From positions 1 through 64,000 of the forward strand of contig PLWV01000006.1 in the NCBI GenBank assembly GCA_003153155.1: a stretch of 64,000 nucleotides of DNA. The letters run 5' to 3'. The notes under the pieces were generated by a model. The model was not told the origin of the DNA. It saw only the letters and a list, made by a program, of their open reading frames with translations, and made no database searches. Shown here one piece after another: positions 15,322 to 56,802 of the stretch (positions within the stretch are counted from its first letter, which is position 1; every line of letters starts with the position of its first letter). The position numbers and the translations under genes were made by a program. The stretch is from Gallionella sp. GTDB lineage: Bacteria; Pseudomonadota; Gammaproteobacteria; Burkholderiales; Gallionellaceae.

Positions 15322-16269
15322 TCAGTCCTCGGTCCTCAGTCCTGCGTTGCCCTTTGTCCTCTGACCGGCCCATGTTATCAAAGCGGATAGCAATCCGTCA
15401 TCCCCGGATGCCGTCAATTGCACCTGAAGCCAACCTTGCTCGCGGGCCAGCCCGGCAATGCGTGCATGCGGCACGAATAACGGTATGTCGCGTATTACTT
15501 GTTGAGATTTACTATCCAGCATCTGCCACAGATAGCCCAAGGCCTCGCTGCTGGTCACGGTGATCGCATCCGGCACGGCGGACAGCAACGCACTTGCATC
15601 CTGTTGCGGCTTGCTGCGCTGGTAGCAGGTGGCATATTCCACCGTCGCACCGCGCGCCTTGAGTGTGTCGCCCAACAACTCGCGTCCGCCATCGCCGCGA
15701 AAAATCATCACGCGCCATCCGGCAACATTCTGCAATTCCGGCAAAGCCAGCAAACCTTCGCTGTCGAAATGTTCGGTGGGTGCAATGACGTTGGAGATAC
15801 CCGATTCGCGCAAGGCTTTCGCACTGCTTTGTCCGACCGTGGCAATTTTCAACTCCCCTCTCCCGCTTGTGGGAGAGGGGTTGTAACCAGCGACTTGGCT
15901 GGCGTTGTTGGGCAGCCTAGTCGAATGGCTATAACCAATGACTTGCCCAGCGTCTTTTGCTGGGTTAGTCAGATGGCTAGTAGTCATATCAGTAGTTCCA
16001 TCAGGGGAGAGGGATGCGCCCGCTGCACGTATCGCCGCGATACCGTAGTGCACGGCGTTCGGACTGATAAAGATGGCGAGGTTGAATTGTCCGAGACGGG
16101 CGATTTGTTCGTGCAGTGTTTTGGTATCTTGCACCGCCGTTATGTCCAGCAACGGGAACAGCAGCGGAATGCCGCCCGCCTGTTCGATACGCCGTGCCAA
16201 TTGCACAGCCTGGTCACGCGGCCGCGTGACGACGATCTTCAGTCCGGTCAGCGGGAGGTCGTTAGTCAT
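15322..16269 (-). CDS. hemD: Uroporphyrinogen-III synthase, with in-frame repeat insertion
   Basis: LTGLKIVVTRPRDQAVQLARRIEQAGG, IATVGQSSAKALRESG, ITVTSSEALGYL; ~54 extra residues of repeat-derived sequence at about 15854-16015. Confidence 0.9.
   Translation of the reverse strand: MTNDLPLTGLKIVVTRPRDQAVQLARRIEQAGGIPLLFPLLDITAVQDTKTLHEQIARLGQFNLAIFISPNAVHYGIAAIRAAGASLSPDGTTDMTTSHLTNPAKDAGQVIGYSHSTRLPNNASQVAGYNPSPTSGRGELKIATVGQSSAKALRESGISNVIAPTEHFDSEGLLALPELQNVAGWRVMIFRGDGGRELLGDTLKARGATVEYATCYQRSKPQQDASALLSAVPDAITVTSSEALGYLWQMLDSKSQQVIRDIPLFVPHARIAGLAREQGWLQVQLTASGDDGLLSALITWAGQRTKGNAGLRTED
15881..15930 (+). repeat. Dispersed hairpin repeat, copy A1 (subtype I), inside hemD
   Basis: ttgtaaccagCGACTtGGCTG...CAGCCtAGTCGaatggct. 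Confidence 0.85.
15931..16003 (+). repeat. Dispersed hairpin repeat, copy A2 (subtype II), inside hemD
   Basis: ataaccaaTGACTtgCCCAGC gtctttt GCTGGGttAGTCAgatggctagtagtcatatcagtagttccatca. Confidence 0.88.
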
Positions 16270-16329
16270 TTTCTGCCAACATAATGCATTTCAGTTTGGC
16301 AAATGGGCCGCAGGTTTTGCGGGAGTAGT

Positions 16330-17292
16330 TTAACCGTGACTTGCGGTCACGTTTAAAATTGCGGCAAGGATTTCATCTGCACCTTGCGCACGCAGCGCAT
16401 CGGCGACTTTATTTCCCAGTGCTTCGGGATTGGCGATCTCGCCGGTCAACTCGGCGTGCGTCATGCGCTTCCCATCCGGGCTGGCAACGAAGCCGCGCAT
16501 CCGCAGCTTGCCATTCTTTACTTCGGCAAAGCCGCCCAACGGCACTTGGCAGCTACCCGCCAGCGCGCGGCTCAGGGCGCGCTCAGCCAATACACAGGTG
16601 GCGGTATCGTGATGGTGCAACGGCTGCAGCAAGGCGATTATATCGGCGCGATCAGCGCGACATTCGATGCCCAATGCGCCTTGCCCGACCGCGGGCAGAC
16701 TGTCTTCGCTGCTGATCAGAGCGCGGATGCGCTTACCCAGCCCCAAGCGTTTCAGCCCGGCGGCGGCGAGGATGATGGCGGCGTATTGCCCTTCGTCCAG
16801 CTTGCGCAAACGGGTTTGCACGTTGCCGCGCAACGGCTCGATGTTGATATGCGGAAAGCGCGCACGCAACTGGCTTTCGCGGCGCAGGCTGGAGGTGCCC
16901 ACCACACTGCCGGCCGGCAACGCGGCCAAATTCTCATGTTTGTTCGAAACGAACGCATCGTGCGGGTCTTCGCGTTCGCCGATGGCGGCCAGGACAAAAC
17001 CTTCCGGAAGGTGCATCGGCACGTCTTTCAGCGAATGCACGGCGAGGTCGGCGCGGCCGTCTTCAAGCGCGGTTTCCAGCTCTTTCACGAACAGTCCCTT
17101 GCCGCCGATCTTGGACAGCGTGACGTCGAGAATCTGGTCGCCCTGCGTGGTCATGCCCAATATACTAACCTCTGTTTGCGGATATAATGCGCGCAGCCTG
17201 TCCCGGATATGCTCTGCCTGCCACATCGCCAGCGCGCTTTCACGCGAAGCGATCACTAAACGGGAAGGGAGGGTTGGGGATATTTGACTCAT
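16330..17292 (-). CDS. hemC: Porphobilinogen deaminase (hydroxymethylbilane synthase)
   Basis: Start reassigned to [56 protein letters not shown]. Confidence 0.96.
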
Positions 17293-17341
17293 CAAAATTT
17301 CCTGAATTTTAATTAAAAATACGCGGCGCATTCTAGCATAA

Positions 17342-17494
17342 GGGCATCTCTAAAAATTCGATCAAGCCGATGATGGCAAGGCGAAAACGGGCGCAAAAGC
17401 GGAGTTTACACGAAGTATATCGCTGCGCGACCCCGCATTTTGAGCCCGTTTTCAACGCCGCCAGCGCGGCTTTAGCGGATTTTTAGAGGTGCCC
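17342..17494. mobile_element. MITE-like 153-bp element with terminal inverted repeats and ATAA target duplication
   Basis: gggcatctctaaaaattcg ... cggatttttagaggtgccc (17/19 bp inverted), internal inverted repeat aaaacgggc.caaaa.cgg, flanked by ataa at 17338-17341 and 17495-17498. Confidence 0.8.
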
Positions 17495-17525
17495 ATAAGG
17501 TGCGCCGTACTTTTGTTCCGAAAAC

Positions 17526-20321
17526 GTGATGAATTTGATTGCCGCCCCTACCGATATTTCCAGCAAGGATTTGCCGCTGCGCGATGATGTGCGCCTGCTT
17601 GGTCGCATTCTCGGCGACACGCTGCGCGAACAAGAGGGCGAAGCATCCTACCAGTTGATCGAGAACGTGCGCCGCGCCGCGGTACGTTTCCGCAAGACGC
17701 AGGACGACCGCGACCGCGTGCAACTCGAGCAAACGCTGGACGCGCTGTCGCCCAGTGAAACGCTGGTGGTGGTGCGCGCCTTCAGCTACTTTTCGCAGCT
17801 GTCCAACATCGCCGAAGACCTGCATCACAACCGCCGTCATCGTGCCCACCTCAAAGCGGGAACCGCGCCAAAAGACGGCAGCCTGCTGCTGGCACTGGAG
17901 CGCATCGGGGAGAAACACATCAGCAAGGAAACGCTGCAATCATTTTTGAACAGCGCGCTGATCTCACCGGTATTGACCGCGCATCCCACCGAAGTGCAGC
18001 GCAAAAGCATCCTCGATTGCCAGTTGATCATTTCGCGCCTGCTGTCCGATCGTGATCGCGTGGACATGACGCCGGATGATCTGGCCGACAACGAGGAGAC
18101 CCTGCATCGCTTCGTACTGATTTTGTGGCAAACACGCATGTTGCGCACCACCAAGTTAACCGTGCGTGACGAGATCAAGAACGGCCTGGAGTTCTACCGC
18201 TACACCTTCCTCAGCGAAATCCCCAAGATTTACGCCAACATGGAAAAGCAACTGGAAGCGCGCTTCGACAAGAACATCCGCATTCCGCCGTTGTTGCGCG
18301 TGGGCAGTTGGATCGGCGGCGATCGCGACGGCAACCCCTTCGTCACCCACGATGTGATGCTGGACGCGGTGCAGCAGCATTCATCGCTAGCCTTTGAGCA
18401 TTACTTGGGTGAGACGCACCTGCTGGGCACCCGCCTGAGCCTGACCGATCGTTTGGTGGAGGTCAGCGATGAGTTGCGCAAGCTTTCCGATGAATCGCCG
18501 GATAAGTCCGCCGGTCGCGCTGATGAACCTTATCGCCGCGCGCTGATTCTGATTTATTCGCGCCTGATGGCCACCGCCCAACAACTGGGTCACAAAATTT
18601 CGCATCTGCCGCCGGTGGACAAACATGCGCAGCCTTATGCCACACCGCAAGATTTCATCAACGATATGGATGTGCTGATCGACTCGCTATTCAAGCATGG
18701 GGCGGTGTATCTGGCACGCGGACGTCTCGCCTATTTGCGCCGCGCCGTGGAAGTATTCGGTTTTCATCTTGCCCCGCTGGACATGCGCCAGCACAGCGCG
18801 ATCCACGAACAAACTGTAACAGAGCTTTTCTCCCATAACAGCGGCCAAGCCCACTATAAAGACTTGGACGAAGCCGCGCGCCGCGAAGTATTGCTGGCCG
18901 CATTGCAAGCTGGCAAACCGTTACTGAGCGACGCTTTATCATCTGATAGCCTTGGGCAATACTCCGACTTGGCGCAAAGCGAGTTGCGCATCATGCAAGC
19001 CGCTGCGGAAATTCATCAGCGCTTTGGCCGCGCCGCACTGCCCAACCACATCATCTCCAAGACTGATGCCGTCAGCGACATGCTGGAGCTCGCCCTGATG
19101 CTGCAACAGGTAGGCCTGCTTGAAAGTGGCAAAAATCCTGTGCTGCACGTCAACATCATCCCTTTGTTCGAGACCATCGAAGACCTGCGCGGTTGCGGGA
19201 CGATCATGGGCGAGTTGTTCTCGATCCCCTACTACCGCAAACTGCTGAGCAGTCGCGGCAATACGCAGGAAGTGATGCTCGGCTATTCCGACAGCAACAA
19301 GGACGGCGGCTATCTCACCGCCAATTGGGAACTGTACAAAGCCGAGGTCGAGCTGGTGAAAGTGTTCGCCAAACACGGCATCGAGATGCGCCTGTTCCAC
19401 GGCCGCGGCGGCACCGTCGGGCGCGGCGGCGGCCCCAGCTACGACGCGATCCTGGCGCAACCGCCGGGCAGCGTGAATGGACAAATCCGCATCACCGAAC
19501 AAGGCGAAGTCATTTCCAGCAAATACTCCAATCCCGAGATTGGCCGGCGCAACCTGGAGACACTGATCGCCGCCACCATGGAAGCCACACTGCTGCATCA
19601 TCACGGCGCGGACAGCACCATGCCGGAATACCATCGCATCATGGAAGCATTAAGCCGCGATGCCTTCACCGCCTACCGCAAGCTGGTATATGAAACTCCC
19701 GGCTTCACCGAATATTTTTTCTCCGCCACACCGATACGCGAAATCGCCGAACTCAACATCGGCAGCCGCCCTTCGGCGCGCAAGGCATCCGACCGCATCG
19801 AGGATTTGCGCGCGATTCCCTGGGTGTTCAGCTGGGGCTTGAACCGCACGCTGTTGCCGGGCTGGTTCGGCTTCGGCAGTGCGGTAAAGCGATTCATCGC
19901 TCGCGAGGGCGATACCGGTTTGGCTCAACTTCAAGCGATGTACAAGAACTGGGCATTCTTCCGCGGCTTGATGTCCAATATGGATATGGTGCTTTCCAAA
20001 ACCGACATGGGCATCGCCTCGAGCTATGCCGAGCTGGTGGATGACGTCGCAATGCGCGAGCGAATTTTCGGCGCGATCAACAACGAATGGGAAAGCACCG
20101 TGGAAATGCTGTTCGCGGTAACCGGTAACACCACGCTGTTGCAGGACAACCCGGCATTTGCGCGCAGCCTGCTGACCCGCACACCCTACATTGATCCGCT
20201 CAACCATTTGCAGGTTGCGCTGCTGCAACGCCATCGCGCCGGAGACAATGACGTACTGGTGAAGCGCGCCATTCATCTCACCATCAACGGCATTGCAACC
20301 GGGTTGCGCAACAGCGGATAA
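17526..20321 (+). CDS. ppc: Phosphoenolpyruvate carboxylase
   Basis: [46 protein letters not shown] motifs; 931 aa. Confidence 0.98.
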
Positions 20322-20486
20322 CATTTGGCGTATTGACACTACCACTCTTTGTAGGGAAACTGCCGGACAGTTTTGGTTTGGTGCATATGGGTGGTCTGAC
20401 CCGATTTTTCATGGGCAAGCAGAAATCGTTGTTTACCTCCCATTACGAACAATTTGATAGCAGACACTTTTAATAGGAGCAGCACT

Positions 20487-21671
20487 ATGCACGCGCAAAA
20501 ACATCATGCTTGGGTATTTATTTTCGGCGGTTTGCTCAGTTTGCTACTGGCGGGCTGCGCGGCCAACGTGGGCAAAACCATTAAGGTTTCTGATGAGCAA
20601 TTAGCCAAGTATGGCACTCTCTCAGCGGCTGACGCCATTGCCGCGCTTGAAAAGCGCATTAACGAGGCGAAGAATGCCAACATGCCGTTTCTTGCACCCG
20701 ATTATTTTCGCGGAGCATCCGAGATTTTGAGCGACGCTCAGAAATCATCGGACAAAAAACCAAAGGACGAGTTGATCAGCCACATCGCCAAGGCTGATGC
20801 CATCCTCGATAAAGGCCAAACCATTATGGCAATCGTGCAGAGTCGTTTGGTCAATGAACTCGCGCTGAAAAACCAACTGGATAAAGATAACGTCGTCAAG
20901 GTTTACCCCAAAGAATATGAAAAATCCGTCAGCGAACTTTCAAGCCTGATTAAAAAAGTAGAACTCGAGAAGGCGGATAATCTCGACAAAGACAAGATCG
21001 AGCTGATCAAAATGATGCAGGCTTTGGACGTCAAGACTATTCAATACACCGCGCTGCATGAAAGCGAAGTGATCAACGAAGACACAAAGAGCAAGGATGG
21101 CGAGAAACAGGCGCCCGCCACTTTGGCCGAGGCACTGCGTGTTTACCTGGATGCCGGGAATCGGATCGTCCAAGCCCCGCATGATGAGGCGTTGGTGCAA
21201 CGCGCCGGAGCCGACGCATTGTTTGCGGCACGCCATGCGCGCTATGTGAGCGAGCGTGTGCTGGCTTTGCAAAATAAATTCAAAGAATCCGTAGAACCTA
21301 TCGTGCTGGAGGAAGAAAAGCGCTTACTCGATATTTCCACCGCATTGGGTCACAAAGACCCGCGCGATCAGCCCATAGAGAAACAGGCCGAAGAGATTGC
21401 GCAGGTCGCCGGAGAGATCGTGCAAGGACAGCAGAAGTCCAAACAGTCAATCGGGGCTGTGAATGACCAAAGTAAAGTTATGGAGAAGCGCCTGAAAGAG
21501 GCCAATGCGCAACTCGCTGAAAAGGACGCACAGATCTCCGGAAAAGATGCGCAGCTTAAAATCCTGAACGATCAAATCGCGCAATTAGAGGAACAAAATA
21601 AATCACTGGTCGCAGCGAAAGCCGCCAAGGCCAAGACAACCAAGGCTCAACGAAAAAGCTCCACCCAGTGA
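20487..21671 (+). CDS. Predicted lipoprotein with C-terminal coiled-coil (DUF4398-like N-terminal region)
   Basis: Start reassigned to MHAQKHHAWVF after taggagc; lipobox SLLLAGCAA. Confidence 0.7.
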   Translation: MHAQKHHAWVFIFGGLLSLLLAGCAANVGKTIKVSDEQLAKYGTLSAADAIAALEKRINEAKNANMPFLAPDYFRGASEILSDAQKSSDKKPKDELISHIAKADAILDKGQTIMAIVQSRLVNELALKNQLDKDNVVKVYPKEYEKSVSELSSLIKKVELEKADNLDKDKIELIKMMQALDVKTIQYTALHESEVINEDTKSKDGEKQAPATLAEALRVYLDAGNRIVQAPHDEALVQRAGADALFAARHARYVSERVLALQNKFKESVEPIVLEEEKRLLDISTALGHKDPRDQPIEKQAEEIAQVAGEIVQGQQKSKQSIGAVNDQSKVMEKRLKEANAQLAEKDAQISGKDAQLKILNDQIAQLEEQNKSLVAAKAAKAKTTKAQRKSSTQ

Positions 21672-22288
21672 AGCCCGCGCGGGATATGGAGAGCCATCAA
21701 ACCCCGGGGTCAATTTCACCTGGCGTGAAAAAGATCATTGTGTCGGACATTCATAACCAGTTATCCGCACCTTCATTCCGTATGCCGCGCGTTCACTGTT
21801 TCGCCCCGATTGAGGACACTGCCGCAATAGTGCTTGTTCTGGGGAGTATGCCCGGGAAGGCCTCTCTTGCAGCGGGCGAGTACTATGCCCATCCGCGAAA
21901 CGTTTTCTGGACTCTCATGGGCGAACTCGTCGGTGCTCATCCTGATATTCCCTACGAAGACCGGCTCAAAATTCTACGATCTTCCGGAATCGCGTTATGG
22001 GACGTACTTGGGTCATGCGTCCGCAACAGCAGTCTCGATTCTCACATTGAGGTGGACTCCGCAGTCCCAAACGATTTCAAGTCTTTCTTCTTGCGGCATC
22101 CAAATATCACGCATGTATTCTTTAATGGAGCCAAAGCTGAGCAGTGTTTTTTAAAGTATGTCCAGCCTTCGCTCAAATCGACCTCGCTGCAATATCAGCG
22201 GCTGCCATCAACGAGCCCGGCTAATGCAGGAATACCGTATGGGCAAAAACTGCTTGCCTGGCAGTCCGTTATGCGACGGTGCTCCTGA
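21668..22288 (+). CDS. DNA-deoxyinosine/hypoxanthine-DNA glycosylase (uracil-DNA glycosylase superfamily)
   Basis: FAPIEDTAAIVLVLGSMPGKASLAAGEYYAHPRNVFWTLM...FNGAKAEQCF; true start possibly MPRVHCFAPI near 21782. Confidence 0.78.
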   Translation: MKPARDMESHQTPGSISPGVKKIIVSDIHNQLSAPSFRMPRVHCFAPIEDTAAIVLVLGSMPGKASLAAGEYYAHPRNVFWTLMGELVGAHPDIPYEDRLKILRSSGIALWDVLGSCVRNSSLDSHIEVDSAVPNDFKSFFLRHPNITHVFFNGAKAEQCFLKYVQPSLKSTSLQYQRLPSTSPANAGIPYGQKLLAWQSVMRRCS

Positions 22289-22356
22289 AAGCTAATAAAA
22301 ACCTGATGAAAAGATGCAAGAAGCAGACTGCTGTTTTTTTCCCGCCATGATTCGGC

Positions 22357-23115
22357 TCAACTGAACTCCTTGACGATATGCTGCTGACGGCGGCTGATTG
22401 CAAGCAGCTCGTCCAAGCCTTTCAGCTTCACCATCCATCCGCTTTCACCTTCGTCGCCGCCCTTTTCAAAGCCCGCAATCGCATCTTTTGCGATCAGGCT
22501 GTTGCGGTGGATGCGCACGAAACGTGCGGCGAATTCTTTTTCCAATTCAGTGAGCGATTCCTCGAGAAGATATTCGCGTTCGGCGGTGCGCACCGTGATG
22601 TATTTCAACTCGGCGCGCAGATACAGCACTTGCTCGATGGGTATCAGGTGAATCTTGCCGCGCTCGTGGATGGATAAATTTTTGCGCGGTTCAGGCAACA
22701 AGTCGCGCAACACTTCGGTTTGCACCGGCACCGCTACACGCGCGCGATTCAGTGCCTCGAACAAACGCCCCAAACGTATCGGCTTTAGCAAATAATCGAT
22801 CGCGTGCAGATCGAATGCTTTGATCGCGTATGCATCGTAAGCGGTGGTAAAAATGACCACCGGCGGCTTGGGCAGTTTGTTCAGATGTTGTGCGAGTTCG
22901 ATACCGTCCATTTGCGGCATGCGGATGTCCAGCAACACCACATCGGCAGGGATTTCCGTGAGCTTGTCCAATGCTTCTTGGCCATTGCCCGCTTCGCCCA
23001 CCACATCCAGTGCCAACTGTTCGCTGCAATCATTCAACAAATCGCGCAGCCGATTGCGTGCCGGGGGCTCGTCATCCACGATGAAAACGCGCAGGGCCAA
23101 TTCGATGTCATTCAT
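22357..23115 (-). CDS. LytTR-family response regulator (AlgR-like)
   Basis: Receiver domain (FIVDDEPPARNRLRDLL, VLLDIRMPQMDGIE) plus LytTR domain (RFVRIHRNSLIA). Confidence 0.92.
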   Translation of the reverse strand: MNDIELALRVFIVDDEPPARNRLRDLLNDCSEQLALDVVGEAGNGQEALDKLTEIPADVVLLDIRMPQMDGIELAQHLNKLPKPPVVIFTTAYDAYAIKAFDLHAIDYLLKPIRLGRLFEALNRARVAVPVQTEVLRDLLPEPRKNLSIHERGKIHLIPIEQVLYLRAELKYITVRTAEREYLLEESLTELEKEFAARFVRIHRNSLIAKDAIAGFEKGGDEGESGWMVKLKGLDELLAISRRQQHIVKEFS

Positions 23116-24245
23116 GATGTTCGCTCCTTTACACCGGACACATAAGGGAAAATGATTTCCACACGATAAAAGTCTTTGCCGCTTTCGACCTGATAGCGCG
23201 CCTCGACATCGAACAGCAAGTCCAGTCGTTCGCGGATGTTGCGCAATGCGACCCTGTTGCCGCGATGCGGTGGTGACAATTTCTCAAGCACGTAAGAGCT
23301 TAGAGAATTGCCTGCACCCTCCGAGTGCAAGAACCCCTGCGGGGCCTTTGGTGCATCAGCGCGCACCGGGCAGGGATTCTCCACCTTGAGATGCAATTCA
23401 TCGCCGCTGCGACGCAGCACGATATGGATGCTGCCGCCTTGCGACAATGGCTCGATACCATGATAAACGGCATTCTCCAACAACGGTTGCAACAACAGCG
23501 GCGGAATCAGCACGTCATCAGGCACGTCCTGAATTTGCCAATCCACGCGCAGCCGTTCGCCCATACGCAATTGCTCCAGGGCCACATATTGTTTGCTCAA
23601 CTGAATTTCCCGGCCCAGCGGCACGAGGTCCTGCGCATCCGACATCGCCATGCGAAACAAGTCTGCCATGTCTTCCAGCGCAGTTTCGGCTTGCTTGGGT
23701 TGGGCGCGCACAATGCCAAGCACGGCATTAATGGTATTAAATAAAAAGTGCGGCCGGATGCGCGCGCGCAATACCTGCAAACGAGCATCATTCAAAGCAC
23801 GCGACAACACCTTGGAACGCAGCCGGAAATACTGCAGCAAAATGCCGCACTCAATCACGCTGAGCAGCCCATATCGCACCATATTGAAATAGCTGTCACC
23901 TCCATCCAGCGGACGATATATCTCTCCGCCGAAGTAATAAATGGACAGCGTCAACACGACCACCAATGCGGTCACCGCCAGCACGCCGCGCCGGTAGGAC
24001 AGCCGGTTTAGCCACGGTTGTGCCACCCATAGCAGCAGCAAACTGGTGAGCAGAACCGGTGTGAGCAGCGTGGCGATCTGCATCATGCGCTGCGCCACGT
24101 CCGTCCATGCGCTCGCCAGCAGGATTGCCTGCAACAATGCCAGACCGTTGCTGATCAGCAGAATGCGCAGCAGGGTGCCGACGTTGCGAAAGTTCGGCAA
24201 CCCATCGGGCCGGGCATTTTGTTTTATACTGCGCGCCTTATTCAT
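23112..24245 (-). CDS. LytS/AlgZ-type sensor histidine kinase
   Basis: Start reassigned to [38 protein letters not shown] His-kinase box; overlaps the response-regulator start. Confidence 0.88.
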
Positions 24246-24308
24246 GGTGTAGACCTCGGGTTTCACGCTTTGGAGGTTACCTTTATTCTGGGACAAGTGG
24301 GGGCAGCA

Positions 24309-25691
24309 ATGCAAGATAAAGATACCTGGTCGGGACGATTCGCTGAACCGGTGGCGGAATTGGTGAAGCGCTACACCGCATCGGTGGGCTTCGATCACAA
24401 GCTGGCCATGTTTGATATTCAAGGCTCGCTGGCGCACGCGCAAATGCTGGCAGCTTGCGGCATCATCGCCACACATGACCTGAATGACATCAAGCGAGGC
24501 CTCGCGCAAATCGAAAACGAAATCATCAGCGGCGAATTCGTCTGGTCGCTGGATATGGAGGACGTGCACCTCAACATCGAAAAGCGGCTTACCACATTGG
24601 TCGGCGATGCCGGGAAACGCTTGCACACCGGACGTTCGCGCAACGACCAGGTGGCGACCGATATACGGCTGTATTTGCGCCATGCGATAGATGACCTGCT
24701 CGGACTAATCAAGGCGTTGCAAAGCGCGCTGCTCGACTTGGCCTCGCAGCACACGAACACCATCATGCCCGGCTTCACCCATTTGCAAGTCGCCCAACCG
24801 GTCAGCTTTGCGCATCACCTGATGGCCTATTTCGAAATGCTCAAGCGCGATGCGGAACGTCTGCGGGATTGCCGCAAGCGCGTGAACCGCTTGCCGTTGG
24901 GCGCGGCAGCATTGGCCGGAACCGGCTATCCGATCAAGCGCGAAATGGTCGCAGAGTTACTGGGCTTTGACGGCGTGTGCGAGAACTCGCTGGATGCGGT
25001 TTCGGATCGCGACTTCGCCATCGAATTCACCGCTTGCGCCGCGCTGATCATGACGCATCTGTCGCGCTTTTCCGAAGAACTGATTCTGTGGATGAACCCG
25101 CGTTTCGGCTTTATCGATATCGCCGATCGCTTCTGCACCGGCTCTTCCATCATGCCGCAGAAGAAGAATCCCGATGTGCCGGAACTGGTGCGTGGCAAGA
25201 CCGGGCGCGTGAACGGTCATCTGGTCGCGTTGCTCACGCTGATGAAGGGCCAGCCTCTGGCTTACAACAAGGACAATCAGGAAGACAAGGAGCCGCTGTT
25301 CGACACCGTGGAAACGCTGACGCAAACCCTGCGTGTCTACGCCGACATGATTACCGGCATCCAGGTCAAGCCGGAAGCCATGCGCAGCGCGGCTTTGCAG
25401 GGCCACGCCACCGCCACCGATCTAGCCGATTATCTGGTGAAAAAAGGCGTGCCGTTCCGCGATGCCCATGAAACCGTGGCTGTCGCGGTGCGCTTCGCCG
25501 AACAACGCAGCTGCGATTTAAGTGCCATCAGCCTTGCCGAATTGCAGCATTTCTCCGCTCTCATCGGAGAGGATGTGTATCAGGTGCTTACGCTGGAGGG
25601 ATCCCTTGCCAGCCGCAACCATACCGGCGGCACTGCGCCGCAGCAAGTCGCTGCGGCGATCGCGCGGGCACGTGCCAGTCTCACGGAATAA
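24309..25691 (+). CDS. argH: Argininosuccinate lyase
   Basis: Start reassigned to [26 protein letters not shown] signature. Confidence 0.97.
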
Positions 25692-25807
25692 CTCCAATTC
25701 CATGGCGTCACTTTCTTCTAAAACGCCGTACTGTGTTGATGTAGCAGATTCATAAGTATCGGCACAAAGGCCACTTAAGGCCTGCTGAAAAATCCGATCA
25801 ACCGCAC

Positions 25808-28303: not shown

Positions 28304-28315
28304 GGGTGAGTACGT

Positions 28316-35294: not shown

Positions 35295-35525
35295 CTGATG
35301 AAACAACTGATATAACAACTGATATAACTGCTAGCCATCTGACTAACCCAGCAAACAGCTTTGCATAGCCATCTGACTAAGTTGGCAAACTACGCCAACT
35401 AAGTCATTGGTTAACGCCAAGTAAGTCGCCAGTCAACGCCAGCCAAGTACACTCGCAAGGGGTAGCTTTGCAGGCGACTTGCAACCAGCCGGAGGCTGAG
35501 CAAGTCGTCACCGCCGTGGTTGTAA
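35295..35525 (-). repeat. Tandem/degenerate array of the dispersed hairpin repeat (copy E)
   Basis: On the minus strand: ttaaccaaTGACTtAGTTGGC gtagttt GCCAACTtAGTCAgatggct, then a partial copy ...gctgggttagtcagatggctagcagttatatcagttgttatatcagttgtttcatcag, plus a related CGACTTGC...GCAAGTCG hairpin. Confidence 0.75.
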
Positions 35526-42419: not shown

Positions 42420-42439
42420 TCAATGAAAATTAAAATCGT

Positions 42440-46593: not shown

Positions 46594-46642
46594 TGGGTGT
46601 TTATTACGATGCGTTTTGACTATCCTTTGAGTCTCACTAATT

Positions 46643-46730
46643 CGTCATTCCGGCGGATAACCAGCGACTTGGTTGGCGTCTTTTGACAATCTTGTCGAAT
46701 GGCTAGTAGTTTCATCAGGCCGGAATGACG
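46643..46730. repeat. Palindrome CGTCATTCCGGC/GCCGGAATGACG enclosing a dispersed hairpin repeat
   Basis: Perfect 12-bp inverted arms 46643-46654 and 46719-46730 directly abut the 64-bp repeat. Confidence 0.85.
46655..46718 (+). repeat. Dispersed hairpin repeat, copy B (subtype I)
   Basis: ggataaccagcgacttggttggcgtcttttgacaatcttgtcgaatggctagtagtttcatcag. Confidence 0.9.
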
Positions 46731-46738
46731 AAGCTCCC

Positions 46739-47125: not shown

Positions 47126-47197
47126 GTTGTCCTCTGCATCAAGATAGGCCGCGCTGCATGCAGCGCGGCCAGTTAGCCGAATCGCAATTATAGCCGC

Positions 47198-48844
<1,647 letters not shown>

Positions 48845-48981
48845 TTATTGTGATTTTCTCATTTCATTTTACCACCTGCCCGGCAGATATAAGGCAAATG
48901 CAAAGTTGGCATTCCCCAAAGCGCCCAATTCCTGCAATAATCACGAACGCAAATGAATAATATTGAAAGAGAGCAAGTAAA

Positions 48982-49644
48982 ATGACGAATCAGGATGATT
49001 TGAAGCGCGCAGTCGCCAGGGCTGCGATTGAGTATGTGCCGTTCGATTGTATCGTCGGCGTGGGCACCGGTTCCACCGCCAACTTTTTCATTGATGAACT
49101 AGCCAAGATCAAGCACAAGATACGCGCCGCGGTCGCCAGTTCGGAGGCTTCGGCGAAGCGTTTGGCGGGACATGGCATCGAGGTGTTGTCGCTCAACGAT
49201 GCGGGCAGCCTGCAGGTGTATGTGGACGGAGCGGACGAGATCACGCGCCATCTGCACATGATCAAGGGCGGGGGGGGCGCGCTGACCCGTGAAAAAATCG
49301 TGGCGGCTGCCAGCAAAAAATTCATCTGCGTGTGCGATGCCAGCAAACTGGTGGATATACTGGGCAATTTTCCGTTGCCCATTGAAGTGATTCCGATGGC
49401 GCGCAGTTCGGTGGCGCGCCAACTGGTCGCGTTGGGCGGACAGCCCAAGTTGCGCGAAGGTTTTACCACCGATAATGGCAACATCATTCTCGATGTGCAT
49501 GGACTGACCATCATGAATCCGGTGGAGCTGGAATCCACGCTGGATCACATCGCAGGTGTAGTTACCAACGGCTTGTTCGCGCGCCGTGCCGCCGATGTGC
49601 TGCTGCTCGGCACAGCGGAAGGCGTGAAGACGATGACAGCGTAA
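48982..49644 (+). CDS. rpiA: Ribose-5-phosphate isomerase A
   Basis: [37 protein letters not shown]. Confidence 0.97.
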
Positions 49645-49702
49645 AAGTTCTTAATCCCCTTCCCAAACGGGGAAGGGACGATTGCCTCCTCTACCGCTTG
49701 CG

Positions 49703-49766
49703 GGATAACCAGCGACTTGGTTATCGTTTTTTGATAGCCTAGTCGAATGGCTAGTGGTTTCATCAG
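49703..49766 (+). repeat. Dispersed hairpin repeat, copy C (subtype I)
   Basis: ggataaccagCGACTtGGTTATCgttttttGATAGCCtAGTCGaatggctagtggtttcatcag. Confidence 0.9.
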
Positions 49767-49854
49767 AGGATTGAGGTGAGGGGTGGTGTGGCTGTCATTT
49801 TCCCTTCACATTTGTCGCCTATGCTACGCAGTTGCTTAACACAAGGAATACATC

Positions 49855-50562
49855 ATGGCCAATAGTGAACATATCTCCCGGCAGTTCGATGCCGATCTCG
49901 AAGCCATCCGCGCTTACGTATTGCAGATGGGGGGATTGGTTGAAAGCCAGATCAAGAGTGCCGTCGAGTCGCTCGTCAGCGGCGATGTGGCTCTGATGAC
50001 CCGTGTGATCAATGACGACCATCGCGTCAACGCCATGGAGGTGAAGATAGACGAAGCGTGCAGCCAGGTGATTGCGCGTCGCCAGCCGGCGGCGGGTGAT
50101 TTACGTTTGGTAATGGCGGTAATCAAGACCATTACCGATCTGGAGCGCATTGGCGATGAGGCCGAGAAGATCGCCCGTATGGCCAAGCTGCTGTCGCAAA
50201 AGCAGGGGCTTGCCATCCCGCGTTATCATGAAATAAAACATGCTTCGGATATCGCCCTGGACATGCTGCGTAAATCGCTGGATGCTTTTGCACGCCTTGA
50301 TGTGGTGATGGCCGCGCAAGTGGTGCGGCAGGACGACCAGGTGGATGAAGAATTCCGCGCCATCATGCGTTATCTCATCACCTTCATGATGGAAGACCCG
50401 CGCACCATTTCCACTTCGCTGGAAATCCTGTTCGTGGCGAAGGCGATCGAGCGCATCGGCGACCATGCCAAGAACATGTCCGAGTATGTCATCTACATGG
50501 TCAAGGGGCGCGACGTGCGCCACATCACCGTGGACGAAGTCGAGCGCGAAGTTCAGCTGTAG
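49855..50562 (+). CDS. phoU: Phosphate transport system accessory protein PhoU
   Basis: ISRQFDADLEAIRAYVLQMGG, KTITDLERIGDEAEKIA. Confidence 0.96.
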   Translation: MANSEHISRQFDADLEAIRAYVLQMGGLVESQIKSAVESLVSGDVALMTRVINDDHRVNAMEVKIDEACSQVIARRQPAAGDLRLVMAVIKTITDLERIGDEAEKIARMAKLLSQKQGLAIPRYHEIKHASDIALDMLRKSLDAFARLDVVMAAQVVRQDDQVDEEFRAIMRYLITFMMEDPRTISTSLEILFVAKAIERIGDHAKNMSEYVIYMVKGRDVRHITVDEVEREVQL

Positions 50563-52037
50563 TGCGGCAACAGCCCATCCTCGCCGCAGTTGATCTGGGG
50601 TCGAACAGTTTTCGGCTGCAGGTTGCCCGGGTCGAGGGAGATCAGCTGTACATGCTGGACGGGTTGCGCGAACCGGTGCGGCTTGCCGCCGGACTCACTG
50701 CCGACAAGTACCTTGATGCCGAAGCACAGCAACGCGCGCTGGCCGCATTGGGACGATTTGCCGAACGCTTGCGCGACTTGCCGCGCGAAGCCGTGCGCGT
50801 GGTAGGCACCAACTCACTGCGCGTGGCCAAGAATGCCGCCGACTTCATTCCTCAGGCCGAGCACACTCTGGGGTTCCCAATCGAAGTCATCGCCGGACGC
50901 GAAGAAGCGCGCCTGATCTACCTCGGCGTGGCGCATGGTTTGCCGCAATCGAAACACAACCGTCTGGTGATAGACATCGGCGGCGGCTCCACCGAATTCA
51001 TCATCGGCAACGGACTCACCCCACTTAAACTGGAAAGCCTGTACATGGGCTGCGTCAGCTTCAGCAGCCGTTTTTTTCCGGACGGAAAAATCACCAAACA
51101 AAATCTCAAGCAGGCCGAACTCGCCGCGCGCAATGAATTACAAACCATCGTCGCCGACTACAAGGGGCAGTGGCAGCAGGCTCTCGGCTCGTCTGGGACG
51201 GCAAGGGCCATTGCCGAAATATTGGAGCTGAACCGCTACAGCAAGGGCGGTATCACGCGCGAAGGACTCGACAAGCTGCGCGCCCATTTGCTCAATGCGG
51301 GCGACGTGCATAAACTCAATCTGCAGGGCTTGCGGCCGGATCGCATACCCACGCTGGCGGGCGGCTTTGCCATCATGTACGCGGCCTTTTGTGAATTGGA
51401 CATTACTCACATGGACACCGCCTTGGGCGCGTTGCGTGAAGGCGTGTTGTACGACTTGTTGGGACGCTTTCATAACAACGACATGCGCAACGTGACAGTG
51501 CAGCAATTCATGCAGCGTTATCGCGTTGATGCCAAACAAGCCGGGCGCGTAGCAAAACTGGCGCAGATATTTGCGCAGCAATTTTTCGACAGTGAAATCG
51601 ACGAAGCCGCGCAGCATATACTCAACTGGGCAGCCAGTCTGCACGAGATCGGCATCAGCGTCGCACACAGCGGCTATCACAAACATACCGCCTACATCAC
51701 AGCCAACGCCGACATGCCGGGCTTCTCAAAAAAGGAACAGGCGCGCCTGAGCCTGCTTACGTTGGCACAGCGCGGCAGCCTGAACAAGCTGCAGGGACAA
51801 CTGAAAAATGCCGCAGATTACGTGTTGGCAATGAGCCTGCGCTTGGCTGTGCTGTTCTATCGCAACCGCAGCGACAGCGGTTTACCCGCTTTGCACGGGC
51901 GTTTCAGCGGCACAAAATTTCACCTCTCGATAGACCCGGACTGGCTAGCACAAAATCCCTTGACCGAAACCGCGTTGCAGGATGAAGTAAAACAGTGGAA
52001 GGCGTTAGGAGTCAGTTTGCAGGTTGTGGAGGGGTGA
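50562..52037 (+). CDS. ppx: Exopolyphosphatase (Ppx/GppA)
   Basis: GTG start overlapping phoU stop; AAVDLGSNSFRLQVARV, VIDIGGGSTEFIIG. Confidence 0.95.
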   Translation: MRQQPILAAVDLGSNSFRLQVARVEGDQLYMLDGLREPVRLAAGLTADKYLDAEAQQRALAALGRFAERLRDLPREAVRVVGTNSLRVAKNAADFIPQAEHTLGFPIEVIAGREEARLIYLGVAHGLPQSKHNRLVIDIGGGSTEFIIGNGLTPLKLESLYMGCVSFSSRFFPDGKITKQNLKQAELAARNELQTIVADYKGQWQQALGSSGTARAIAEILELNRYSKGGITREGLDKLRAHLLNAGDVHKLNLQGLRPDRIPTLAGGFAIMYAAFCELDITHMDTALGALREGVLYDLLGRFHNNDMRNVTVQQFMQRYRVDAKQAGRVAKLAQIFAQQFFDSEIDEAAQHILNWAASLHEIGISVAHSGYHKHTAYITANADMPGFSKKEQARLSLLTLAQRGSLNKLQGQLKNAADYVLAMSLRLAVLFYRNRSDSGLPALHGRFSGTKFHLSIDPDWLAQNPLTETALQDEVKQWKALGVSLQVVEG

Positions 52038-52091
52038 TTCCATTTCAAAGGTAAAACAATCCGTAGGTCGGGGTTCGTGCCTTGCCCAAGG

Positions 52092-52991
52092 CTACGATTT
52101 CTCCAGCACTTCGCTCAACATGCGCGCCACACCGGTTTGCCACGATGGAAGGTTCAAATCGAAAGTGTGTTGCAGCTTCGTCGTATCCATCCGCGAATTG
52201 TGAGGGCGTCTGGCGGGCGTGGGAAAAGCGCTGGTGGGCACGGGCCGGATGGCATCAGGCGCAACTTTGAGCGTGATGCCTGCGCTTCGGGCAAAATCGA
52301 GTACGAAGCTGGCGTAGCCGTGCCACGAAGTTTCACCTCCGGCAACCAGATGATACAGGCCGGACAGCTCCGGTCGCTGCCGGGCAGTGCGGATCGCGTG
52401 GGCGGTGATGTCGGCCAGCAAATCCGCCCCGGTGGGTGCGCCGATCTGATCGTCGATGACGGTAAGACTCTCGCGCACTTGGGCCAGTCGCAGCATGGTT
52501 TTGGCAAAATTGCCGCCGCGCGCGCCATACACCCAACTGGTGCGGAAAATGAGGTGCCGGCAACCCGCTTGCCGGATGAACTGCTCGCCTTCCAGCTTGG
52601 TTGCGCCATACACGCTCAGCGGAGCGACAGGGTCGGTTTCTAACCAGGGTTTGTCACCACTTCCGTCAAACACATAGTCGGTGGAATAATGGATCAGCCA
52701 TGCATTGGCACGCTTGGCTTCCTGTGCCAGCACACCGGGTGCAAGTGCGTTGATAGTGCGGACCAGCTCCGGTTCGCTCTCTGCCTTGTCCACCGCCGTG
52801 TGCGCGGCTGCATTTACGATCACATCCGGTGCGATGGAACGAACCGTTCGGGCGAGACCTTCCAGATCGGTGAAATCGCCACACAGCTCCTGGCTATCGG
52901 CATCCACCGCGATCAACTCTCCCAATGGCGCAAGACTGCGCTGCAGTTCCCAGCCGACCTGGCCGTTTTTGCCGAGGAGAAGGATCTTCAT
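52092..52991 (-). CDS. rfbD: dTDP-4-dehydrorhamnose reductase
   Basis: MKILLLGKNGQVGWELQRSL, STDYVFDG, TSWVYGARGGNFAKTMLRLA. Confidence 0.96.
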   Translation of the reverse strand: MKILLLGKNGQVGWELQRSLAPLGELIAVDADSQELCGDFTDLEGLARTVRSIAPDVIVNAAAHTAVDKAESEPELVRTINALAPGVLAQEAKRANAWLIHYSTDYVFDGSGDKPWLETDPVAPLSVYGATKLEGEQFIRQAGCRHLIFRTSWVYGARGGNFAKTMLRLAQVRESLTVIDDQIGAPTGADLLADITAHAIRTARQRPELSGLYHLVAGGETSWHGYASFVLDFARSAGITLKVAPDAIRPVPTSAFPTPARRPHNSRMDTTKLQHTFDLNLPSWQTGVARMLSEVLEKS

Positions 52992-53011
52992 CAGAATGCA
53001 ACCTCACAATT

Positions 53012-53126
53012 CGTCATTCCCGCGCAGGCGGGAATCCAGTCAACAACAAAAGCCCCGCAACGCGGGGACAAAACCTCAAGGCATATTGGATAAAACCGCT
53101 GGATTCCCGCCTGCGCGGGAATGACG
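53012..53126. repeat. Inverted 28-bp repeat pair between rfbD and rfbB
   Basis: CGTCATTCCCGCGCAGGCGGGAATCCAG (53012-53039) and exact reverse complement at 53099-53126; internal agccccgcaacgcggggac hairpin. Confidence 0.9.
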
Positions 53127-53151
53127 GTATTAGAATGTTTTAAGGTTTTCA

Positions 53152-54216
53152 CTAAGCACGTCCCGCGTAATTCTTTTCTACCCACTGCCGGTAGTTTCCG
53201 GACTGCACGCTGCTCACCCAGTCCTGATTTTCAAGGTACCACTTTACAGTTTTGCGGATGCCGGTCTCAAAAGTCTCGAGGGGTTTCCAGCCCAGCTCGC
53301 GTTCGATCTTGCGCGCATCGATGGCATAGCGGCGGTCGTGGCCGGGACGGTCGGTGACAAAGACGATCTGTTCGCGGTAAGACTTGCCGTCAGCTCGTGA
53401 ACAGAGTTCGTCGAGCAGCGCGCAAACCGTGTGCACGATGTCGAGATTGGCTTTTTCATTCCAGCCGCCGATGTTGTAGACCTCGCCCGGCTTGCCTTTT
53501 GTCAATACACAGCGTATCGCGGCGCAGTGATCCTTGACGTACAACCAGTCGCGGATTTGCTGGCCGTCGCCATATACCGGCAGCGATTTCCCCGCCAGCG
53601 CATTGACGATCATCAGCGGGATGAGCTTTTCCGGAAAGTGGTACGGACCATAGTTGTTGGAACAGTTGGTGGTCAGCACCGGCAAGCCGTAGGTGTGGTG
53701 ATAAGCCCGCACCAGATGGTCGCTGGCGGCCTTGCTGGCGGAGTAAGGGCTGTTCGGTTCGTAGCGTCTGGTTTCACTAAACGCCGGCTCGTCCTTAGCG
53801 AGCGAGCCATACACTTCGTCGGTGGAGACATGCAAAAAGCGGAAGCCGGATTTTTCCGCATCCGCCAAACCGTACCAGTAGGCGCGCACCGCCTCAAGCA
53901 AATGGAAAGTGCCGACGATGTTGGTTTGAATGAAATCTCCGGGGCCGTGGATGGAACGATCCACATGGCTTTCCGCCGCAAAATTGACGGCGGCGCGCGG
54001 GCGATGTTCGGCAAGCAGCTTGCCCACCAATTGCGCGTCGCCGATGTCGCCGCGCACAAAGATGTGGCGCGGGTCATTCTTGAGCGTAGCGAGGTTTTCC
54101 AGATTGCCCGCGTAAGTCAGCTTATCCAGATTGATTACGGTCTCATCGCTTTGCGCGAACCAGTCGAGGACGAAATTCGAACCAATAAAACCTGCGCCAC
54201 CAGTCACTAATATCAT
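53152..54216 (-). CDS. rfbB: dTDP-glucose 4,6-dehydratase
   Basis: [45 protein letters not shown]. Confidence 0.97.
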
Positions 54217-54399
54217 GTTATTTACCGCCTCGGACGAGGCGCGTTATGTCCCAAATGTGGCGCGATTATATTCGATGCGCTCAGTCAGTCATACATGCCA
54301 ATACTTCGCACAACTTTTTCAAGTTAACCGTAGGAACCACTTCCACATTCGGACCGAACGGCTAGCATTTTCTCAGACGTGAAATCACCTGCGCAATCA

Positions 54400-54985
54400 G
54401 CGAAGATGCCGGCTACGATACCATTCTGCCGTGGCGCGCAAGCCTTGCTCCAGCTTATATGGCGGAAACCAGGCCAATTCTCTTCATATCTTTTCATCAT
54501 TGACGCGCAACGAACCGAGCAATCTATCAACCTGCTCCGCGCGCGTCCCAATGCAGCAGCCATGACACCCAGCAGGGCGGGCGGAAAATAAAATCCGGCT
54601 ATTGCAACCCAATGCCCGGGCAATCTTTTCCACCAGCATCGCCGTCGAAACATCATCGCCATCACTGACCAAATAAGTCTGTCCGACGGCAGCGGGATGT
54701 GTCGCACAGGCGATCAAAGTATCCGCCAAATTGCCCACATATACCAGACTGCGCACATTGTTCGCGCCCGCCAGCGGCAATGGAATTCCTCGATCGATTG
54801 CGGCCAGCAGGCTGATGAAATTCCCTTTCAAACCGGGACCATAAACCAACGGCGGGCGCACGATCACGACCTCAAGCCCGGTTTCTTGTGAATGCGCTGC
54901 AAGTCTTGTTCGGCCCGCCATTTCGAGATGGCGTAAGGATCTTGCGGATTGGGTTCCTCTGACTCCGCAAAGCGTTGCGCTAAAG
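54400..54985 (-). pseudogene. Decayed NAD-dependent epimerase/dehydratase fragment
   Basis: VVIVRPPLVYGPGLKGNFISLLAAIDRGIPLPLAGANNVRSLVYVGNLADTLIAC is mid/C-terminal epimerase; N-terminal Rossmann part absent; in-frame TGA (VNDEKI*RELAWFPPYKLEQGLRATAEWYRS) and apparent frameshifts. Confidence 0.8.
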
Positions 54986-55190
54986 ACCAGAGTAAACACC
55001 AGCATGATAAGTAATGGGCGCGCCAATGCCCACGTGATGCAAATGGTGGTCTTGTAGCTCACAAGAATATCGCGCCAAGCCAAAAAGAAGAACAGTTCGC
55101 GGTAACGCCACAGGTCTCGCCAGTAATGGCGCCGTCCTGCCTGCCTCGATAACTAGTGTTGACTGATTAGCGTGTGGATTGATCATGCAA
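54986..55190 (-). pseudogene. N-terminal fragment of ABC-2 polysaccharide export permease (Wzm-like), frameshifted
   Basis: [17 protein letters not shown] then, in another frame, RHYWRDLWRYRELFFFLAWRDILVSYKTTICITWALARPLLIMLVFTLVFS; fused to the epimerase remnant. Confidence 0.78.
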
Positions 55191-55728
55191 ACAATTCCGC
55201 TGCACTAAAGTTTTTACCTTGCGCATCTTTACCGGAAACTACCGGGGCAGCCTGCAGCTTCCAATCTATCGCCAGCTTCTGATCATCCCAACGTATGCAG
55301 CGTTCGTGCTCCGGGAACCAGTAATCGGTGGTCTTGTACAAAAATTCTGCGGTCTCTGAAAGGACAAGGAAGCCATGCGCAAAACCTTCCGGTATCCACA
55401 GCATGAGCTTGTTCTCGGCCGATAATTCCAGCGAGACATGCCGCCCGAAAGTCGGTGAATCTTTCCGGATATCCACCGCAATATCGAGCACCGCGCCTTG
55501 CACCACGCGCACCAATTTGCCTTGCGGATGCTGGATCTGATAGTGCAATCCGCGCAGCACATTTTGAGCAGAGCGCGAGTGGTTGTCCTGCACGAAATCC
55601 ACATCACGGCCAGTCAGCTCGGCGAACCTGCGCCGATTGAAACTTTCAAAAAAGAAGCCGCGATCATCGCCAAATACTTTGGGTTCGAAGATCAGCAGGT
55701 CGGGGATGGCGGTATGAATCAGTTTCAT
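55183..55728 (-). CDS. rfbC: dTDP-4-dehydrorhamnose 3,5-epimerase
   Basis: [36 protein letters not shown]. Confidence 0.97.
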
Positions 55729-56627
55729 TCTGGCGCACCCTTTTCCTTAAGCACCCGCATCAAGTAGGCGCCATAGCCGCTCTTAAGCAGGGGTGCGGCG
55801 AGCTTCTCCAGTTGCGCAGCATTGACAAATCCCATGTGATAGGCGATCTCTTCCGGGCAGGCGATCTTGAGTCCCTGGCGATGTTCGATGGTCTGGATGA
55901 ACTGGCTGGCTTCGAGCAATGATTCGTGCGTGCCGGTATCCAGCCAAGCGTAGCCGCGCCCCATGATTTCAACGGACAAGCTGGAGCGCGCCAGATAGAG
56001 GCGGTTGACATCGGTGATTTCCAATTCACCGCGCGGGGAAGGTTTGAGGTTGGCGGCAATATCCACGACGGTATTGTCGTAAAAGTAGAGGCCGGTGACG
56101 GCATAATTGGACTTGGGCTGCGCGGGTTTTTCTTCCAGCGAAACAGCATGTCCGTTCGCATCGAACTCCACCACCCCATACCGCTCCGGGTCGCGCACAT
56201 GATAGGCGAACACGGTCGCGCCTGTTGCGCGCCGTGCCGCGTTTGCCAATTGATGCTGGAAGGCATGCCCGTAAAAGATGTTGTCCCCCAGCACCAGCGC
56301 GGAAGGGTGGTTGCCGATGAAGTCACGCCCGATGATGAAGGCCTGCGCCAGGCCGTCCGGCGAGGGTTGCACGGCATATTGCAGATTCAGTCCCCACGCG
56401 CTGCCATCGCCCAGCAATTGCTGGAATCGCGGCGTGTCTTGCGGCGTGGAGATGATCAGGATGTCGCGTATCCCCGCCAGCATGAGGGTGGACAGTGGAT
56501 AATAGATCATCGGCTTATCGTAAATGGGCAGCAGTTGCTTGGATACCGCCAGAGTCACCGGATGCAGGCGTGTGCCGGAACCACCGGCGAGGATGATGCC
56601 TTTTCTGGCAAGCTGGGAATGGCTCAT
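55725..56627 (-). CDS. rfbA: Glucose-1-phosphate thymidylyltransferase
   Basis: [44 protein letters not shown]. Confidence 0.97.
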
Positions 56628-56738
56628 GCTGCGCTTCCTTTGCTGCGCGGGCCGGTCAGTGATTTTCCGGTGCGGCCGGTTGATCTTAAAGTGATGCGAT
56701 CTGGGGTCGCCAAGCCTGTCCTGAGCTTGATAAAACGA

Positions 56739-56802
56739 CTGATGAAGCTACTAGCCATCTGACTAAGCCGCCAAACTACGGCAGCTAAGTCATTGGTTAT
56801 GT
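56739..56802 (-). repeat. Dispersed hairpin repeat, copy D (subtype II)
   Basis: Minus strand: cataaccaaTGACTtAGCTGCC gtagttt GGCGGCTtAGTCAgatggctagtagcttcatcag. Confidence 0.88.

What the first reader, a model, noticed from the sequence alone, without database searches (positions are those of the whole stretch)
15881..56802. Dispersed ~64-bp structured repeat family with covarying stems and a conserved T.T mismatch
Seen directly at five loci: 15881-15930 and 15931-16003 (tandem), 35295-35420 (array, minus), 46655-46718, 49703-49766 and 56739-56802 (minus). Consensus: (G)GATAACCA-R-YGACT-T-N(5-7)-loop(often GTNNTTT)-N'(5-7)-T-AGTCR-RA-TGGCTAGTAGTTTCATCAG. The ends are nearly fixed while the inner stem differs in sequence yet stays paired: GGCTG/CAGCC, CCCAGC/GCTGGG, GGTTATC/GATAGCC, AGCTGCC/GGCGGCT, AGTTGGC/GCCAACT. 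Two subtypes swap a base pair in concert: CCAG-CGACT...AGTCG-AATGG versus CCAA-TGACT...AGTCA-GATGG. A T.T mismatch sits at the same stem position in every copy. Compensatory change with a fixed mismatch implies selection on a folded RNA or single-stranded DNA hairpin. Inference: a mobilised hairpin unit comparable to REP/RAYT, IS200/IS605 end hairpins or attC-like folded sites, but I recognise no described family with this consensus.
Basis: partly seen in the sequence, partly recalled or inferred. Interest (0 to 1): 0.88.

Follow-up and report, generated by a model that had tools for sequence, protein, structure and literature searches.

The report
Tiny 60-base self-nesting jumping hairpin
Iron-oxidising Gallionella-type bacteria carry up to about 160 copies of a 60-base DNA hairpin that has jumped, to the exact base, into intergenic DNA, genes and other copies of itself, and two natural versions with different tails land at different target sites, which makes it a good test case for how the smallest mobile DNAs move and choose targets.

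Summary
The repeat is real and mobile. The unit is exactly 60 nt, TAACCA-[mismatched hairpin]-TGGCTAGTNGTTTCATCA; 106 of 111 full-length copies extracted from the host genome have this length. A covariance model finds 160 matches in the 2.75-Mb genome and copies in 40 of 41 sampled genomes of the genus (Gallionellaceae), but none in 16 genomes from other families of the order.

The stem covaries strongly, the T.T mismatch is nearly fixed, and G.T wobbles occur mainly on the written strand (129 versus 19), so that strand is the one that folds. Copies sit between A and G with no target duplication. Removing an inner copy restores an exact 60-mer in 23 nested cases, and intact empty sites exist. 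In the window, two nested copies form part of an in-frame insertion in hemD that some relatives lack.

A second version keeps the same hairpin core but has the tail TGCARAGC, and it inserts at GT^Y instead of A^G. Tail and target change together.

Best model: a single-hairpin, non-autonomous element of the REP/IS200-IS605 kind, moved in trans by a Y1 HUH enzyme. The enzyme is not identified: no Y1 gene is systematically linked or co-distributed, the 5' GTAG tag is absent, and no replication-strand bias was found.

The parts
15884..15931 (+). Outer type I copy, first 48 nt (hairpin core TAACCA...TGGCTA); its target sits beside a palindromic repeat inside hemD
   Evidence: cmsearch 50.3 bits; removing the inner copy restores an exact 60-mer (via L396)
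15932..15991 (+). Inner type I copy, complete 60 nt, inserted at GGCTA^GTAG of the outer copy
   Evidence: cmsearch 77.1 bits; the identical 60-mer occurs 7 times in the genome, in clearly different host copies in at least four of them
15992..16003 (+). Displaced 12-nt tail (GTAGTTCCATCA) of the outer type I copy
   Evidence: sequence; excision test
15322..16269 (-). hemD (uroporphyrinogen-III synthase) reading frame carrying the nested copies in frame as about 50 extra residues (87-138)
   Evidence: PF02602 in two stretches; hemD of several congeners lacks these residues
35358..35413 (-). Type II copy, 56 nt: same core, tail TGCAAAGC, inserted at GT^T in the loop of a type I copy
   Evidence: window - 28587; cmsearch 53.1 bits
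35414..35435 (-). 5' 22 nt of the degenerate type I host copy interrupted by the type II copy
   Evidence: sequence; 22 + 38 nt rejoin to 60 nt
35320..35357 (-). 3' 38 nt of the same host copy
   Evidence: sequence; weak model match 35320-35345
35296..35319 (-). Two further displaced 12-nt tails (GTTGTTATATCA, GTTGTTTCATCA), remnants of outer copies
   Evidence: sequence
46658..46717 (+). Complete type I copy, inserted at GGA^GG in the middle of a palindrome (CGTCATTCCGGC/GCCGGAATGACG arms)
   Evidence: cmsearch 80.7 bits; sequence; an empty counterpart of this target type is in the genome (L053 row)
49706..49765 (+). Complete type I copy, inserted at GGGA^GAGG beside a palindromic repeat
   Evidence: cmsearch 87.5 bits; sequence
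56740..56799 (-). Complete type I copy, TGACT/AGTCA subtype, between genes
   Evidence: cmsearch 79.7 bits; sequence

Best explanation
This is a miniature, non-autonomous, single-hairpin mobile element restricted, as far as sampled, to Gallionellaceae. SHOWN: a fixed unit (60 nt type I; 54-57 nt type II) with exact ends, present in 1 to about 160 copies per genome. It inserts cleanly at a short target (A^G for type I, GT^Y for type II) with no duplication or loss, often into other copies of itself. The written strand is the one kept foldable. The foot, the T.T mismatch and the opposed G.A pair are conserved, while the inner stem need only pair. The 3' tail and the target specificity change together between the two types. 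INFERRED: an enzyme binds the folded single strand at its foot and mismatches. It cuts just 5' of TAACCA and just after the tail's last base, and rejoins the excised strand into a matching site; the tail supplies bases that pair with the nucleotides left of the cut. For example T50 would pair with A or G in type I, and G50 with C or T in type II. This is the logic of Y1 HUH transposases (IS200/IS605 TnpA, TnpA-REP). The Y1 enzyme is assumed to act in trans and is not identified.
For: Exact length: 106 of 111 copies are 60 nt. Target: A 38/44 and G 40/44 around the cut at unique sites; A^G 206 of 253. Excising inner copies restores exact 60-mer hosts in 23 cases, at positions 36 and 48 (type I, plus one at 6) and 22 (type II). 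17 of 52 targets have an empty counterpart in the sampled part of the same genome, including exact A^G joins. hemD of several congeners lacks the insertion. Covariation. G.T 129 versus A.C 19 in 216 distinct copies, p=3e-21. DNA fold z=-6.3. Two tail types with different targets: type II has T 31/34 and C 2/34 at -1, and G 30/34 at -2. Published rules fit: TnpA-REP cuts at CT or CA on either side of the hairpin, GTAG positions 2 and 4 select CA, a stem bulge is needed and the upper stem is non-specific (PMC8266576); IS608 target choice can be reprogrammed through its own DNA (PMC5934647 abstract). Type I keeps T50 and G52 while position 51 is free. Y1 genes are common in the genus.
Against: No Y1 gene is systematically flanked by the element. 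Those examined have their own GTAG REPs, or GGGGACAGACCACGG-type repeats. Presence does not track Y1 genes: G023 has Y1 genes but no copies, while G022 (83% complete, 110 copies), G006 and G053 (99% complete) have copies and no Y1 hit in either search. Orientation relative to replication is 67/119, p=0.20; one genome, G056, leans one way. There is one hairpin, not two. The putative guide lies 3' of the hairpin, whereas known guides lie 5'. Targets are not more foldable than random AG sites (p=0.22).
Confidence: 0.62

Rival explanations
1. The element is mobilised by another HUH enzyme of the rolling-circle kind (IS91/ISCR or Helitron-like), which also inserts without target duplication and ends near a hairpin.
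For: No duplication; a hairpin lies 12 nt from the 3' end; Helitrons insert between two fixed bases (A^T) with a hairpin about 10-12 nt from their 3' end (own knowledge).
Against: Both ends lie at one hairpin and the 5' cut is right at its foot; the length is fixed at 60 nt, whereas rolling-circle ends slip; two tails with two targets fit a guide better. Y2 genes were not searched.
Confidence: 0.13
2. A site-specific (tyrosine or serine) recombinase acts on the folded strand, as integron integrases do on attC.
For: Folded, mismatched hairpin with a sequence-free inner stem and a strand-specific fold, as in attC.
Against: No attC core boxes; insertions at A^G or GT^Y, not G^TT; no shared overlap longer than one base between ends and targets; two specificities with one hairpin core.
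Confidence: 0.1
3. The element spreads through an RNA copy (reverse transcription or reverse splicing of a small structured RNA).
For: G.T (G.U) wobbles are kept mainly on one strand; the sequence is structured and short.
Against: No A-tail, no target duplication, no intron-like ribozyme; no Rfam match; precise insertion in either orientation relative to genes.
Confidence: 0.06
4. It is not mobile by itself: an old structured repeat spread by recombination, gene conversion or as passenger of other repeats.
For: Composite arrays do move as units: in G055 an outer element carrying a nested 60-mer is amplified; many targets are other repeats.
Against: Identical inner copies sit in different host copies, and copies sit at unrelated unique sites with exact joins.
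Confidence: 0.04

Closest known systems
REP sequences and TnpA-REP/RAYT (TnpAY1 subclass 2.2; E. coli REPtron, Marinomonas REPs)
   Same: Short single-strand hairpins in high copy, mostly intergenic, with conserved stem mismatches and a sequence-tolerant upper stem; TnpA-REP cuts at CT or CA on either side (PMC8266576); REP insertions that keep reading frames are known (PMC6006769).
   Different: No GTAG/GT[AG]G at the 5' foot; no linked RAYT; longer (60 nt) with an unpaired 3' tail that defines the end; ends and targets can be read to the base; two tail types with different targets.
IS200/IS605 elements and their non-autonomous derivatives (IS608, ISDra2)
   Same: No target duplication; the bases left of the insertion resemble the element's own 3' end; mismatched subterminal hairpins; target choice depends on element DNA (PMC5934647).
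   Different: One hairpin instead of a left and a right one; no tnpA or tnpB; putative guide 3' of the hairpin; no lagging-strand bias found.
REPINs
   Same: Miniature, non-autonomous, REP-based mobile DNA proposed to be moved by RAYTs in trans (PMC3116915).
   Different: REPINs are pairs of inverted REPs; this is one hairpin that nests in itself at fixed points.
Rickettsia palindromic elements and enterobacterial small mobile repeats
   Same: Small elements inserted in genes, mobiliser unknown (own knowledge for Rickettsia; PMC2759123 for intragenic RU elements).
   Different: Different sequence and host; exact A^G or GT^Y targets and self-nesting here.

Membership tests
GTAG-tagged REP family | GTAG or GT[AG]G directly 5' of the hairpin foot | tested here: not met
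   The 5' foot is TAACCA with the variable host flank before it; GTNG occurs only 3' of the hairpin
GTAG-tagged REP family | Short palindrome in high copy, mainly extragenic | tested here: met
   160 matches; 11 of 67 copies inside open frames of 200 aa or more against 390 of 600 random positions
GTAG-tagged REP family | Cognate RAYT gene flanked by the repeat (REPtron) | tested here: not met
   Y1 genes of the genus carry other REPs; nearby 60-mers are insertions into those REPs
GTAG-tagged REP family | Conserved mismatch or bulge in the stem (subclass 2.2 REPs) | tested here: met
   T.T nearly fixed, G.A/A.G opposed, A3.C46
IS200/IS605-derived miniature element | Insertion without target duplication, with left target bases matching the element's 3' end | tested here: met
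   CA end with A/G at -1; GC end with T/C at -1; exact joins
IS200/IS605-derived miniature element | Left and right subterminal hairpins | tested here: not met
   One hairpin only
IS200/IS605-derived miniature element | Preference for the lagging-strand template | tested here: inconclusive
   67/119, p=0.20 over parts of three genomes
IS200/IS605-derived miniature element | Autonomous relative with the same ends | tested here: inconclusive
   Scan for separated left and right halves in about 150 loci found none; whole genomes were not scanned for this
Integron attC site | RYYYAAC / GTTRRRY core boxes and G^TT crossover | tested here: not met
   Sequence and insertion points
Any Rfam RNA family | Match above the gathering score | tested here: not met
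   Only a TPP riboswitch elsewhere in the window
Y1 HUH-mobilised element (mechanism) | Cleavage of the folded strand by a Y1 enzyme | not testable with these tools
   Needs biochemistry

The most novel reading that the evidence does not exclude
A distinct class of single-hairpin mobile DNA whose short 3' tail, not a tetranucleotide 5' of the hairpin, programs the target by pairing. Natural tail exchange on a constant hairpin core has retargeted it from A^G to GT^Y, and it is moved in trans by an enzyme not yet associated with any repeat.
Probability: 0.3. Interest if true: 0.86.

Novelty: new variant of a known kind. Interest (0 to 1): 0.7.

Why it matters
Whether and how REP-like hairpins transpose is a long-standing question, partly because their ends and insertion sites are hard to read. 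Here the ends, the empty sites and the nested hosts can all be read to the base in dozens of cases. Two natural tail types on the same hairpin core give a ready retargeting experiment: swap the tails and ask whether the target follows. If a short tail really sets the target, this would be among the smallest DNA units known to choose a landing site by pairing. The in-frame insertion in hemD also shows how such units can add protein sequence.

Tried and rejected
Nearby Y1 gene L009 (243 aa) with a TAACCAGCG...TTCATCA-like stretch upstream: rejected as partner, because homologues lack that stretch, carry GGGGACAGACCACGG or GGGGTCAGACTCGA repeats, and match subclass 2.1 of PMC6006769. RAYTs L010/L011 and about 30 others: most have their own GTAG REPs, and nearby 60-mers are insertions in those REPs. 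Contig-end copies in G055 looked like the ends of a larger IS, but proved to be an outer repeat with a nested 60-mer. Autonomous version: none found. Replication-strand bias: G056 alone leaned one way, lost when three genomes were pooled. Preference for foldable targets: not significant. Presence in plasmid and phage records: none. Literature searches for these hosts with repeat terms found no description; subscription papers are not covered. One off-by -6 nested case, and 215+31 copies whose host is not a clean 60-mer, are uninformative for the excision test.
Full report
WHAT WAS CHECKED. A covariance model built from 11 copies finds the window copies with E-values from 1.6e-25 to 0.0034, and 160 matches in the 2.75-Mb genome. 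The 11-mer TGGCTAGTAGT occurs 105 times in that genome, against 2 for the reversed-pattern control. No Rfam family matches.

THE UNIT. 111 full-length copies were extracted from the host genome and 106 are exactly 60 nt: TAACCA-[hairpin]-TGGCTA-GTNGTTTCATCA. Columns 1-6, 43-48, 52 and 59-60 are invariant in these 106. The fold of a consensus-like 60-mer as single-stranded DNA has z = -6.3.

STRUCTURE. In 92 distinct copies from 80 loci of relatives, 97.7% of stem cells pair. The covariation score is 0.429 against 0.168 in shuffles and at most 0.094 when the arms are slid. Both the outer stem (pairs 8-40 and 9-39) and the inner stem (14-34 to 20-28) compensate, the T.T mismatch is present in 96/104 own and 113/115 relatives' copies, and position 7 against 41 swaps G.A for A.G. 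G.T wobbles on the written strand outnumber A.C (which would be G.T on the other strand) 129 to 19 across 216 distinct copies, p = 3e-21. Excluding the pair with most wobbles still leaves 67 to 18. Copies are related, so the p-value is not exact, but the direction is clear: the written strand is the one kept foldable.

DISTRIBUTION. Of the 41 genomes of the genus sampled over three searches, all but G023 have at least one match, from 1 to about 160 per genome. None of 16 genomes from other families of the order has one. Two viral contigs hold a copy; plasmid and phage records hold none.

MOBILITY. Insertion lies between A and G: at 44 unique non-self sites A is 38/44 before and G 40/44 after the cut, with nothing else strongly conserved. 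When the base before is not A it is G; because the right end keeps its own final A in those cases, the boundary is fixed. 17 of 52 targets have an empty counterpart in the sampled part of the same genome, several exact, for example AGGGGGAGGGCTA^GGGAGGGGGTAGA and TTCGACAAGCTCA^GGGCGAACGG. Copies sit inside copies. Taking the inner one out restores an exact 60-mer in 23 cases, and the insertion points are positions 48 (11 cases), 36 (8), 6 (1) and, for the second type, 22 (3). One identical 60-mer occurs seven times, nested in clearly different hosts in at least four cases, which implies independent insertions.

TWO TAILS, TWO TARGETS. 34 further copies share the 48-nt core TAACCA...TGGCTA but end in TGCARAGC or close variants (54-57 nt in all). 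They insert at GT^Y: T 31/34 or C 2/34 at -1, G 30/34 at -2. Many lie in hairpin loops, either the GT^CTTTT loop of type I copies or loops of GTAG REPs. The window copy at 35358-35413 is one of these. So the element's last bases (CA or GC) and the bases left of the target (A/G or T/C) belong together. A simple reading, which is inference, is that position 50 of the element (T in type I, G in type II) pairs with the base left of the cut, wobbles included. In the one TnpA-REP system of PMC8266576 that cuts at both CT and CA, GTAG positions 2 and 4 select CA cuts and position 3 can vary; type I GTNG keeps T50 and G52 and lets 51 vary. The known guides lie 5' of the hairpin, and this one lies 3', which is a real difference.

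GENES. Copies are mostly intergenic: 11/67 lie in open frames of 200 aa or more, against 390/600 random positions. The tandem at 15881-16003 is part of an in-frame insertion of about 50 residues in hemD (Pfam HEM4 in two stretches). hemD of several congeners lacks those residues; two other congeners have different insertions in the same linker.

WHO MOVES IT. Y1 (HUH) genes are common in the genus. The host genome has three: two look like TnpAY1 subclass 2.2 and one like subclass 2.1, by the motifs in PMC6006769. Their flanks carry other repeats. Copy number does not track Y1 presence: G023 has Y1 genes and no copies; G022 (83% complete), G006 and G053 have copies and no Y1 hit in either search. 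No gene-bearing version turned up. Orientation relative to replication is 67/119, p = 0.20. The mobiliser is therefore unknown; a Y1 enzyme acting in trans, possibly lost in some lineages, is the best guess from the exact joins and the tail-target rule. Y2, integrase and RT families were not searched.

VERDICT. It works like a REP/IS200-IS605 hairpin, but it cannot be filed as a GTAG REP (tag and linked RAYT tested, not met) or as an IS200/IS605 miniature (two hairpins tested, not met). It is a new variant of a known kind, with an unusual 3' tail that appears to set the target.

Noticed in passing
window 14463-14488 and 14523-14548; 109 places in the genome: A second short repeat, CGGGTGCCCGG[AC]CAAAAGYTYTTCG[TG], about 26 nt, with 109 exact matches to its first 11 bases against 0 for the control. 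Base 12 and the last base covary (A-T or C-G). It is also found inside 60-mers, and the 60-mer inserts into it at CA^AAAG.
   Followed up: partly
G055 loci L316-L335: An outer repeat (TTAACGTGAAAC...GCCATGCCCGTTAG) carrying a nested 60-mer is amplified almost identically and breaks contigs. Its 3' hairpin is also seen in the host genome (L004).
   Followed up: partly
L397 and L398 (G012, G013 hemD): hemD of two congeners has different insertions in the same linker, as if this linker is a recurrent safe site.
   Followed up: no
L260, L261 (viral contigs): Two viral contigs carry a copy, one beside phage tail genes; phages could carry the element between hosts.
   Followed up: no
Y1 loci such as L268, L425-L437: Gallionellaceae genomes hold many RAYTs, most with their own GTAG REP (GTAGGATGGGTTGAGC.., GTAGGGTGGATAAGCG.., GTAGGGCGGGT..).
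   Followed up: partly
window 14027-14092: Exact 33-bp tandem duplication inside a reading frame.
   Followed up: no
window 61381-61488: TPP riboswitch, 56.9 bits, upstream of the gene at 61512.
   Followed up: no
window 53012-53126: Perfect 28-nt inverted repeat with 59 nt between the arms, CGTCATTCCCGCGCAGGCGGGAATCCAG, another REP-like palindrome.
   Followed up: no
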